A stretch of DNA of 37,193 nt from Turneriella sp. (GTDB lineage Bacteria > Spirochaetota > Leptospiria > Turneriellales > Turneriellaceae). The stretch spans positions 1 through 37,193 of the forward strand of contig JABARV010000020.1 in assembly GCA_019186965.1 (NCBI GenBank), written 5' to 3'. A program made the position numbers and the translations under genes. The notes under the pieces were generated by a model. It saw nothing but the letters and a program-made list of their open reading frames with translations, had not been told where the DNA came from and searched no databases. Numbering within the stretch: position 1 is the stretch's first letter; the number at the start of each line of letters is the position of its first letter. Positions 218-35,525 of the stretch are shown piece by piece.

Positions 218-239
218 CGCCTCTGAAGACAGAGACTCC

Positions 240-1259
240 CTACGGTCGTCGCACGGGGCGGAAGCCGATGACGCTGTTCGCGATCCACGGCGTGTAGCCC
301 AAGCGGTCCGCCCCCCGCAGGTAGGTGGCGGTATTGTAAAAGCTGCCACCGCGATTGACCCGATTCGTACCGCTTGCGGGGCCTGCATAATCGGTCGCCT
401 GTGTGCCACCCGGATAAGTTGCATACCAATCCCAAGTCCATTCCCAAACATTCCCGCTCATGTCGTAAATACCCAACGCATTCGCGGTTTTTTGACCAAC
501 AGGTTGTGTGGTCGTTGTGTTGCCCGTCGGCGGTGTCACAGAATTACCAAACCACGCGACCGCAGACGTCGCCGCGAAATCTGAAGTATTTGCGGTCGCA
601 CCGCTCGCGAAATCACCCGCCAAGAACGTGGACCCATCTATGTAACGCGCCGCGTATTCCCACTCCGCTTCGGTCGGTAGCCGATAGCCATTCGCCGACC
701 AGTTGACGTACGGGTTGTCAATTTCACCGTTACCTGTATGGGCAACGCTGTCGCTGGGCGTAGATTTCAATACAGTTGTAAAGCCTAAGTCGGTGTAATA
801 CACCGGCGTCAAGCCTTGCTTTTCCGACGCCGCGTTGCACCACACAATCGCATCGCGCCAAGAAATTGTCGTCACCGGGTGCTGGTCGGTGAGTGAACCC
901 GTGCTGCCCTGTACGCCCGCGTTGGCAAAAGTATAGCCATTGCTGGTTGCCCACGTCTTGACCGCCACCCAGTCGCCGTATTGCACTTCATACTTTGCCA
1001 TCGAAAAAGCCGTTATCGAAGGGATTGTCTGGGTTGTTGTCGTTATGGCGGCATCACCCATCACAAAATTACTCGCTGTCGGCACGCAGACCATCGCGAG
1101 TGTGTCGCTAGCAACCTGCGTTGCACAATCCGCCGTTGTGGTCGTGCTGCCAGAATTATCTGATTTTTTCTTTGCTTCTTCCCAGAAGTTTCCCCAACTA
1201 TGGCAGGCTGCCGTCAAGCACAGGCATGAGCAGAGAACCGCAAGAACAAGTCCACGCAT
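240..1259 (-). CDS. SUMF1/FGE-sulfatase-domain lipoprotein
   Basis: Predicted 339-residue lipoprotein. A hydrophobic signal peptide ends in the lipobox LTAAC (Cys19), followed by a Ser/Thr-rich linker. A formylglycine-generating-enzyme-type (SUMF1) domain fills roughly residues 50-339; visible hallmarks are GYRLPTEAEWEYAAR, MSGNVWEWTWDW and RGGSFYN near the end. The active-site cysteines of true formylglycine-generating enzymes are not seen after RGGSF, so a binding or structural role at the cell surface is more likely than sulfatase maturation. The frame is open upstream to a GTG at 1358, but the ATG at 1257-1259 is chosen because it gives a clean lipoprotein signal; the extension would only encode tandem-repeat sequence. 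A broken paralogue lies at 34413-34748. Confidence 0.85.
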   Translation of the reverse strand: MRGLVLAVLCSCLCLTAACHSWGNFWEEAKKKSDNSGSTTTTADCATQVASDTLAMVCVPTASNFVMGDAAITTTTQTIPSITAFSMAKYEVQYGDWVAVKTWATSNGYTFANAGVQGSTGSLTDQHPVTTISWRDAIVWCNAASEKQGLTPVYYTDLGFTTVLKSTPSDSVAHTGNGEIDNPYVNWSANGYRLPTEAEWEYAARYIDGSTFLAGDFASGATANTSDFAATSAVAWFGNSVTPPTGNTTTTQPVGQKTANALGIYDMSGNVWEWTWDWYATYPGGTQATDYAGPASGTNRVNRGGSFYNTATYLRGADRLGYTPWIANSVIGFRPVRRP

Positions 1260-1261
1260 AC

Positions 1262-1334
1262 GCGGGTATGCGGGTATGCGGGTATGCGGGTAGCGGGTAG
1301 CGGGTAGCGGGTAGCGGGTAGCGGGTAGCGGGTA
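1262..1334. repeat. Tandem repeat: three 8-mers (GCGGGTAT) then seven 7-mers (GCGGGTA)
   Basis: Three octamers at 1262-1285 and seven exact heptamers at 1286-1334, ending two bases upstream of the start codon of the SUMF1 lipoprotein (1257-1259). The array therefore occupies the expected ribosome-binding and promoter region of that gene. Neither unit is a multiple of three. Confidence 0.95.
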
Positions 1335-1416
1335 GCCATAGTTACATGTAACTCGCACAGTTATTTTGTCAAGGATTTTCGTGGTTTCCTAGGGGTTGTC
1401 CAATTGGCTCGCGTTC

Positions 1417-1500
1417 GGTCACTTCGACTCCGCTCAGTGACCGTAAGCACTAATGTTTTTGCAAAATCCGGTCGTTGAGCGGAGTCGAAACGCCCGGATT
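1417..1500. repeat. Inverted repeat of the TTCGACTCCGCTCA family
   Basis: 1417-1442 is a hairpin with arms GGTCACT/AGTGACC. 1470-1491 carries the same core in inverted orientation (GAGCGGAGTCGAA). A further pair AATCCGG/CCGGATT brackets the second copy (1465-1471, 1494-1500). This core is a REP-like sequence seen in many bacterial genomes. No coding function is seen. Confidence 0.75.
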
Positions 1501-1531
1501 TTTCGCCAATTAGACGGCCCCAGGGTTTTGC

Positions 1532-5260: not shown

Positions 5261-6028
5261 TTACGTACGTTTAGGCTCAGGAGCCATTTGTGCCGTTACC
5301 CAAACTGATAATTCGCGAAACAATTCCGCTGTACGGTAAATCGCAGGATAGATAACTTTTGTTTTCTTCTTTTCAATTGCCACACAAATTTCCTTAGCAA
5401 GACTTTCTGCAGTACCAAAAGGAACATAGTTCATCGCATCTTTTTCATAGCGTTCATCTGCATACTCTGCCATCGCCGTTTTAACCGGTCCGGGATAAAC
5501 TGTTAAAAAATGGATTTTACTATTTTTGTATTCCCCAGCAAGAGCAACCGTCACTGCCGCAAGCGCAGCTTTTGATGCACAATACTCAGACATAAAAGGC
5601 GTTGGTGTTATACCGCCTATACTTGCAATATTTACAACCGTGCCCGAATTTCGTTTAAGCATTTGGGGTAAAACTTTACGCATAAGCCGTACCGGAGTTA
5701 TGTAGTTAAGCTTAAACATTTTTTCAGCATCGTCGTTTTGGATAGCTATAAAATGGTTGATGTTTTGTACTCCCGCATTATTAATGAGTAAATCGACGGG
5801 ACCATGTTCTGCAACTGCTTTATCGAGAGTCATTTCGGCAACAGTAGGTTCTGCAAGGTCGGCAGCGTATACAGCTGATTTACTATTTAACGAATTCGCA
5901 AGGTTTTCCAGAAGTTCTTTTTTACGCGATGAAAGAGAGAAGAAAGCTTCTCCTTTAAAATAGCGATCGAACTCATGTGCAATCGCGTTACCAATACCTG
6001 TAGAGGCGCCTGTAAGAAAAATGTGCAT
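5261..6028 (-). CDS. Short-chain dehydrogenase/reductase (classical SDR)
   Basis: 255 residues. All classical SDR landmarks are present: FLTGASTGIGNAIA for cofactor binding, the structural motif INNAGVQ, a Ser in VNIASIGG, and YCASKAA as the catalytic Tyr-Lys pair, followed by VYPGPVKTAM. It should be a cytoplasmic NAD(P)(H)-dependent oxidoreductase; the substrate cannot be told. The start is ATG 6026-6028. The upstream gap (6029-6366) contains only repeats and the terminator of the next gene. Confidence 0.88.
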   Translation of the reverse strand: MHIFLTGASTGIGNAIAHEFDRYFKGEAFFSLSSRKKELLENLANSLNSKSAVYAADLAEPTVAEMTLDKAVAEHGPVDLLINNAGVQNINHFIAIQNDDAEKMFKLNYITPVRLMRKVLPQMLKRNSGTVVNIASIGGITPTPFMSEYCASKAALAAVTVALAGEYKNSKIHFLTVYPGPVKTAMAEYADERYEKDAMNYVPFGTAESLAKEICVAIEKKKTKVIYPAIYRTAELFRELSVWVTAQMAPEPKRT

Positions 6029-34412: not shown

Positions 34413-34748
34413 CCCAGACGTGTCGGGTATGCCAACGCCATCGTTGCCCTGAACGCCTGCGTTGATAATCGTGTAGCCGTTGCTCGCTGCCCACGTCTTG
34501 ACCGTCATCCAGTCGCCGTACTGCACCTCATACTTCGCCATCGCAAAGGCGGTGATTGAATCGATTGTTGTCAGGGGTGTGGCGACACCTGTGTAGCCGA
34601 GCTCGAAATTACTCGCTGTCGGCACACAGACCATCGCAAGCATATCGCCTGCTGTGGCTACATCGATTTGAGAACAAACCGAAGCATTCGCTTTTGATTT
34701 TTTATCCGCTTCTTCCCAGAAGTTCCCCCAACCCTGGCAGGTGGCTGT
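34413..34748 (-). pseudogene. Broken SUMF1-domain lipoprotein gene
   Basis: Reads in one frame from just after the stop of the DUF6498-like gene: GWGNFWEEADKKSK, then MLAMVCVPTASNFELG, SITAFAMAKYEVQYGDW and NGYTIINAGVQG. These match residues about 20-135 of the SUMF1 lipoprotein at 240-1259. The match starts at the lipobox, where the signal peptide is lost, and ends near 34413, where about 200 C-terminal residues are missing. Both ends are therefore cut. Confidence 0.85.
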
Positions 34749-35525
34749 CTAAGTGAGCAGTGGAAAAATTTTCTTTAGAATACGATTCAATCTCTCTTTA
34801 CCAAATGTGATTAACATTTCGAAGGCCAGCATTACCGAGACACAATACCACAGCATCGCCGTTGCAAATACGCCTGGATCAGTATCTCCCCTGAACCGGC
34901 CGGCAAAAGTAATAATTAGAATAAGGCTACCCCAGGAAAAAATGACGGAATGAATGAATTCCATAGAGCCTGATGTTGCTGCACGCCTATTTTCCCTCCG
35001 CCAAATTATTTGGTCCCAAATCACAGAAATCATGAGAACAAGAAATTCTATCGGGTTGGCAACGATGGGCTGGTAGAATTCAGAAACATCGAGAGAATTG
35101 CTGCCGTTGCTACCAGGTATAAGACCTAGAGCAATCGCAAACAGAAAAAGGCAAGGCAAAAAATAGGAAGCGATAGTTATTCCTCCAAGTAAAACAGCAT
35201 TCGAGATTCTATCTGATAGGGGCATGCCGTCAGAAAGCCAGAATTGCCGAATGGGTGCAGCCAAGGCAATCACCACCATCTCGGCGACGATGTAATATAA
35301 ATAAACGCCTATAGACCAATCGAAAAAGTAGACGCCGATGACTGGGATCGCGTTACGCAAAGCAATCGAGATTAACTGCCCAATGTTATCAAAGGTAATT
35401 CTTGAATTTTTCAATTCTATCAACAAGCGGCAATGTGCGACACACGAACCGTCAAGCGGAAATTTCTGATCAGTCTTGATGCGTACAACTTTAAAGCTGC
35501 TTCTCAGCAGCCTGTGCCGCATCAC
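34749..35525 (-). CDS. DUF6498-like membrane protein
   Basis: 258 residues as an open frame; six hydrophobic segments. LRNAIPVIGVYFFDWSIGVY is typical of DUF6498 proteins near their start. The first about 33 residues (charged, with Cys) look unlike the family, so the true start may be a TTG near 35426; the ATG at 35525 overlaps the upstream gene by 35 bases. The stop is followed in the same frame by the SUMF1 pseudogene, so its end may have been made by that junction. The function is unknown. Confidence 0.6.
   Translation of the reverse strand: MMRHRLLRSSFKVVRIKTDQKFPLDGSCVAHCRLLIELKNSRITFDNIGQLISIALRNAIPVIGVYFFDWSIGVYLYYIVAEMVVIALAAPIRQFWLSDGMPLSDRISNAVLLGGITIASYFLPCLFLFAIALGLIPGSNGSNSLDVSEFYQPIVANPIEFLVLMISVIWDQIIWRRENRRAATSGSMEFIHSVIFSWGSLILIITFAGRFRGDTDPGVFATAMLWYCVSVMLAFEMLITFGKERLNRILKKIFPLLT

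What the first reader, a model, noticed from the sequence alone, without database searches (positions are those of the whole stretch)
1262..1334. Hypervariable-type tandem array directly before a surface lipoprotein start
Seven 7-mers and three 8-mers end two bases before the ATG of the SUMF1 lipoprotein and replace its ribosome-binding region. An upstream GTG (1358) is in frame through the array, while an ATG at 1337-1339 is out of frame and would come into frame with one more 7-mer. Slipped-strand change could switch or tune expression.
Basis: partly seen in the sequence, partly recalled or inferred. Interest (0 to 1): 0.6.

Follow-up and report, generated by a model that had tools for sequence, protein, structure and literature searches.

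The report
Phase-variable switch on DGR surface lipoprotein
A run of 7- and 8-base repeats sits just after the likely true start codon of a surface lipoprotein whose other end is rewritten by a diversity-generating retroelement, so repeat slippage would switch on or off a protein whose binding face is also hypermutable.

Summary
The array is real and not chance: on the minus strand ATG (1339), GCTACCC x7, GCATACCC x3, GCGT, ATG (1259). The array is then in the signal-peptide coding region and one unit shifts the frame. As assembled the gene reads OFF (41 codons, stop). A paralogue has an unrelated heptamer array at the same place and reads ON; two sister-species homologues carry further unrelated arrays and read OFF; four array-free homologues are in frame. 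The lipoprotein is a diversity-generating-retroelement (DGR) target: adenine-biased TR/VR differences, Avd, HRDC and RT genes, best PDB match T. denticola variable protein 1. The assembled RT lacks its motif A region, so DGR activity here is doubtful. Switching is inferred; no copy-number variation could be observed. No paper found combines the two mechanisms.

The parts
1288..1336 (-). Array block 1: GCTACCC x7 (7-mers; each unit shifts the frame by +1)
1264..1287 (-). Array block 2: GCATACCC x3 (8-mers; each unit shifts the frame by +2); homogeneous block that looks like an inserted A later copied by slippage (inference)
1337..1339 (-). Proposed true (leaderless) start codon ATG, 27 nt after the -35 box; 80 nt from ATG 1259, so out of frame in this assembly (OFF)
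1367..1372 (-). -35-like box TTGACA; the 27-28 nt spacing to the start codon is shared by 8 genus homologues and peaks genome-wide
1356..1358 (-).
1257..1259 (-). Internal ATG (MRGLVLAVLCSCLCLTAAC), possible fallback start
1214..1339 (-). OFF-state ORF: 41 codons plus TGA when read from ATG 1339 with 7+3 units
240..1339 (-). FGE-sulfatase/SUMF1 (C-type-lectin-like) lipoprotein gene, ON frame after a one-unit change; as assembled open from ATG 1259 (240-1259)
252..375 (-). DGR variable region (VR) matching the template repeat at G000:C14:1827-1950; 12 of 15 mismatches are at template A
221..234 (-). Stem-loop CTCTG-TCTT-CAGAG just downstream of the VR stop codon, as in DGR targets; also at the C2 paralogue as CTCTG-CTTA-CAGAG
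34434..34781 (-). Decayed third copy of the same gene (5' end and signal peptide lost, in-frame stop)

Best explanation
The array is a translational phase-variation (contingency) switch in the 5' coding region of a DGR-diversified surface lipoprotein. Transcription starts at or next to the ATG at 1339 (leaderless mRNA). Codons after it run through the 7-mer/8-mer array into the signal peptide. Gain or loss of a unit by slippage changes the reading frame: 5+3, 8+3, 7+2 or 7+5 units are ON, and the assembled 7+3 is OFF. Independently, the 3' end of the gene (ligand face of the C-type-lectin-like domain) is a DGR variable region. Expression and binding specificity would thus be varied by two separate mechanisms, the second possibly frozen in this genome because its RT is deleted. 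Shown: array, frames, promoter/start spacing, unrelated arrays at the same site in a paralogue and two homologues, DGR TR/VR/Avd/RT. Inferred: leaderless initiation at 1339, slippage in living cells, OFF meaning no lipoprotein, surface location.
For: (1) The C2 paralogue (69% aa identity, 80-85% nt) has a different heptamer array (CCGTCTT x4.9 + CCTCTGT x3.1) at the same place; G006:C200 has GTACACC x4.3 and G004:C240 CACCACGC x4.2 at the same place. Position is kept and sequence is not. (2) Eight genus homologues have TTGAC(A/G)-like boxes 27-28 nt before an ATG/GTG; in the four without an array that codon is in frame with the lipoprotein, and in G006:C108 and C45 it is the only plausible ATG. 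G001:C66 also has TATAAT at the -10 place. (3) In the genome sample first ATGs lie 27/28 nt after TTGACA-like boxes 14 and 22 times against a mean of 3.0 per position; a Shine-Dalgarno-like motif precedes only 101 of 528 first ATGs. Leaderless mRNAs are common in Leptospira (PMC5243855). (4) G006:C200 has no in-frame ATG downstream of its array, so it needs the upstream one. (5) Array-bearing genes are ON 1 of 4, array-free 4 of 4. (6) Units of 7 and 8 shift the frame and their repeats hold no stop codon in any sense frame (read from the sequence). (7) DGR: VR/TR mismatches at A 12/34 against 3/90 elsewhere (p=8.6e-6); for C2 17/34 against 4/90 (p=2e-8); Avd above cut-off, HRDC, RT; best PDB matches are T. 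denticola variable protein 1 and, for the RT, 8ub7.
Against: No copy-number variation was observed: one assembly, no reads, no second strain. The internal ATG 1259 gives a compact signal peptide without the array, so the array could be 5' UTR. The -10 element of the window promoter is poor and the genome-wide -10 is not sharp. Array-bearing ON 1/4 also fits the null that the upstream ATG is irrelevant. Arrays are absent from other homologues (G006:C49, C108, C45), so the switch is not a fixed feature of the family.
Confidence: 0.62

Rival explanations
1. The array is untranslated 5' leader before ATG 1259. Unit number tunes expression in steps (transcription or ribosome access), as the heptamers at H. 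influenzae hmw1A/hmw2A do, without on/off frame switching.
For: ATG 1259 and C2's ATG open compact signal peptides right after the arrays; heptamer tuning is established for hmw1A (PMC8262952).
Against: 27-28 nt box-to-ATG spacing and the genome-wide peak put the transcript start at 1339; no Shine-Dalgarno motif before 1259; G006:C200 has no ATG after its array.
Confidence: 0.22
2. Neutral minisatellite: slippage-prone arrays arise and persist in the loosely constrained n-region of the signal peptide, without selected switching.
For: Unit sequences are unrelated, some homologues lack arrays, and the n-region tolerates any stop-free sequence.
Against: Arrays of this class occur at no other gene in 833 kb of this genome or in 221 kb of G006, yet recur at this site in three genomes with frame-shifting, never 3n, periods.
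Confidence: 0.13
3. Heptamers are binding sites for a regulator or ribosome factor, as proposed for TAACTGA repeats before start codons in Beggiatoaceae.
For: Heptamer arrays next to start codons are known there (PMC4679880).
Against: Those share one sequence at 169 sites; here each array has its own unit and only this gene family carries one.
Confidence: 0.03

Closest known systems
Neisseria opa genes (CTCTT repeats in the leader-peptide coding region)
   Same: Frame-shifting repeat in the signal-peptide coding part of a family of variable surface proteins, changed by slipped-strand mispairing (PMC3960869).
   Different: Units of 7/8 with a different sequence in every gene; probable leaderless start; lipoprotein; variation of the binding face by a DGR instead of recombination.
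Haemophilus influenzae hmw1A/hmw2A heptamer repeats
   Same: 7-bp tandem array at the 5' end of a surface-protein gene (PMC8262952).
   Different: hmw arrays lie in the promoter region and tune transcript level; here the array lies after the likely start codon.
Treponema denticola TvpA and related DGR lipoproteins
   Same: FGE/C-type-lectin-like lipoprotein with a 3' DGR variable region; best PDB match 2y3c, E=1.3e-31; lipoprotein targets described in PMC4891356.
   Different: No repeat switch is reported: the terms 'tandem' and 'phase vari' do not occur in PMC4891356.
TAACTGA heptamers of Beggiatoaceae
   Same: Heptamer direct repeats directly before start codons (PMC4679880).
   Different: One shared unit genome-wide, proposed RNA-binding role.

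Membership tests
DGR variable protein | Template repeat with adenine-biased differences to the variable region | tested here: met
   12/34 A against 3/90 other positions, p=8.6e-6; C2 copy 17/34 against 4/90
DGR variable protein | DGR RT with GxxxSQ motif and an Avd-type accessory gene in the genome | tested here: met
   RT with GNQTSQ, best PDB match 8ub7; Avd NF033474 above cut-off, HRDC
DGR variable protein | VR at the 3' end of a C-type-lectin/FGE-fold gene, stem-loop downstream | tested here: met
   stem-loop read from sequence
active DGR system | RT complete, hence able to diversify the target today | tested here: not met
   About 69 aligned residues including the motif A region (SDIQSYFQS in G006) are missing in the assembled G000 RT
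opa-type translational contingency locus | Repeat unit not a multiple of 3 inside the 5' coding region | tested here: inconclusive
   Units of 7 and 8; coding only if ATG 1339 is the start, supported
opa-type translational contingency locus | ON and OFF frames alternate with unit number | tested here: met
   in silico only
opa-type translational contingency locus | Unit number varies between clones | not testable with these tools
   no reads or second strain; four homologous genes differ in their arrays
hmw1A-type promoter heptamer array | Array upstream of the start codon, graded effect on transcript | tested here: inconclusive
   start-codon evidence argues against; transcript level not testable
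TAACTGA heptamer system | One shared heptamer at many genes | tested here: not met
   exact unit pair found at this locus only; paralogue has another unit

The most novel reading that the evidence does not exclude
A two-layer variation system in Leptospira-related spirochaetes: a retroelement rewrites the ligand face of a lipoprotein, and independently arisen, sequence-unrelated frame-shifting arrays at its leaderless start switch each copy on or off, so a clone can store or display diversified variants.
Probability: 0.4. Interest if true: 0.75.

Novelty: new variant of a known kind. Interest (0 to 1): 0.58.

Why it matters
It would join two separate ways of generating bacterial surface diversity in one gene and would make the use of DGR lipoproteins testable: silent copies could be diversified and later displayed. 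It also shows that array position can be conserved while array sequence is not, which repeat-sequence searches miss, and that leaderless starts need to be considered when calling phase-variable genes.

Tried and rejected
GTG 1358 as the start (inside the promoter spacer). A genome-wide shared heptamer (unit found only here). General abundance of such arrays in the genome (none elsewhere in 833 kb). Arrays as a general feature of FGE-domain genes: in 80 loci from other genomes only the two already known genus loci have one directly at the gene start; G048 has an AGATACA x7.4 array, but it ends about 145 nt before a Shine-Dalgarno-led ATG. A viral-contig scan gave only distant relatives and was not analysed further. 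Papers joining DGR with slippage: none found on the topic.

Full report
Observation. The array exists as described. In gene orientation it reads ATG(1339)-GCTACCC x7-GCATACCC x3-GCGT-ATG(1259). The longest exact period-7 run in 300 order-1 Markov sequences of window length was 21 nt; the real one is 51 nt. All ten units are perfect, in two homogeneous blocks, which suggests recent copying by slippage (inference).

Host. The window is a whole 37-kb contig of a 3.08-Mb, 27-contig genome. Its closest database relatives are Leptospiraceae/Spirochaetota metagenome genomes. One congener has a 4,384,015-base main contig, which from memory fits Turneriella parva; this was not tested.

The gene. The protein is an FGE-sulfatase (SUMF1) domain protein (PF03781, E=1.5e-40) with a lipoprotein-type signal peptide (LTAAC, read by eye). 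Its best PDB match is T. denticola variable protein 1, 2y3c, E=1.3e-31, a DGR target. The last 124 bases up to CCCCGTG (VR 252-375) match a second sequence at C14:1827-1950, directly after a reverse transcriptase gene. Differences fall on template adenines: 12/34 against 3/90 (p=8.6e-6), and for the C2 copy 17/34 against 4/90 (p=2e-8). Upstream of the RT lie Avd (NF033474, above cut-off) and HRDC genes. The window gene and the C2 gene are therefore DGR targets. Compared with the RT of G006, the assembled RT lacks about 69 aligned residues including the motif A region, so new diversification in this genome is doubtful unless the deletion is an assembly fault or the enzyme comes from elsewhere; only one RVT_1 match was found.

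The same site elsewhere. The C2 paralogue has CCGTCTT x4.9 and CCTCTGT x3.1 at the same place; G006:C200 has GTACACC x4.3; G004:C240 has CACCACGC x4.2. The units are unrelated, and all periods are 7 or 8. In 833 kb of this genome (531 ORFs of at least 200 codons) no other exact array of period 7-15 with at least 3 copies exists, and none of period 4-15 in 221 kb of G006. Since the window was chosen for its array, the independent facts are the paralogue and the two sister-species genes. More distant FGE paralogues in this genome have no array of such units.

Start codon. Upstream of the array is TTGACA, then 27 nt, then ATG 1339. The same spacing (27 or 28) is found in C2, G004:C240, G006:C200, C49, C108, C45 and G001:C66. 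In the last four, which have no array, that codon opens the lipoprotein frame; in C108 and C45 no other ATG serves. In the genome sample, the distance from TTGACA-like boxes to first ATGs peaks at 27 (14) and 28 (22) over a mean of 3.0, and the half of the sample fetched later shows it independently (10 and 11 over 1.6). Most first ATGs lack a Shine-Dalgarno-like motif. This is what leaderless transcription gives, and leaderless mRNAs are common in Leptospira interrogans (PMC5243855). The -10 element is weak in the window and not sharp genome-wide. GTG 1358 lies 8 nt after the -35 box. Three other homologues (G002:C84, G003:C193, G006:C9) do not show the box-to-start spacing.

Mechanism. Read from ATG 1339 the assembled 7+3 array gives 41 codons and a stop. 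8+3, 5+3, 7+2 and 7+5 give a 361-371-residue protein with an N-terminal extension such as MATRYPLP... before the signal-peptide core. Array-free homologues also have N-terminal stretches there before the hydrophobic core. C2 is ON; G006:C200 and G004:C240 are OFF. In G006:C200 no in-frame ATG follows the array, which is hard to reconcile with a purely 5'-UTR array. The internal ATG 1259 may allow low fallback expression in the window gene.

Comparison. It works like Neisseria opa (repeats in the leader-peptide coding region, PMC3960869), with heptamers as in hmw1A (PMC8262952), on a TvpA-like DGR target (PMC4891356). Membership among DGR targets is shown. Membership among translational contingency loci is probable but lacks the defining observation of variable unit number. 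Full-text searches found no paper joining DGR and slippage switching.

Limits. One assembly per genome, no reads, no transcript data; homologue numbers are small.

Noticed in passing
L089:17848-17877 (G000:C2:217848-217877): AGCC x7.5 tetranucleotide array inside the coding frame of a membrane acyltransferase-like protein (by eye); a second candidate phase-variable gene, in frame in this assembly.
   Followed up: partly
L019:1001-1828 (G000:C14): The DGR reverse transcriptase has an in-frame deletion of the motif A region; Avd, HRDC and the template repeat look intact.
   Followed up: partly
window 1390-1530 and L018 about 5400-5530: Inverted-repeat elements bounded by TTGTCCAAT/GTCTAATTGG-like ends lie just upstream of the promoters of both DGR lipoprotein genes, and a similar one lies downstream of the G004:C240 gene; possible miniature mobile elements.
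   Followed up: no
window 34434-34781: Truncated copy of the same lipoprotein gene near the other end of the contig.
   Followed up: partly
L028:31-82 (G048, another family of the phylum): AGATACA x7.4 array upstream of another FGE-domain gene with an asparagine-rich, DGR-like C-terminus.
   Followed up: partly
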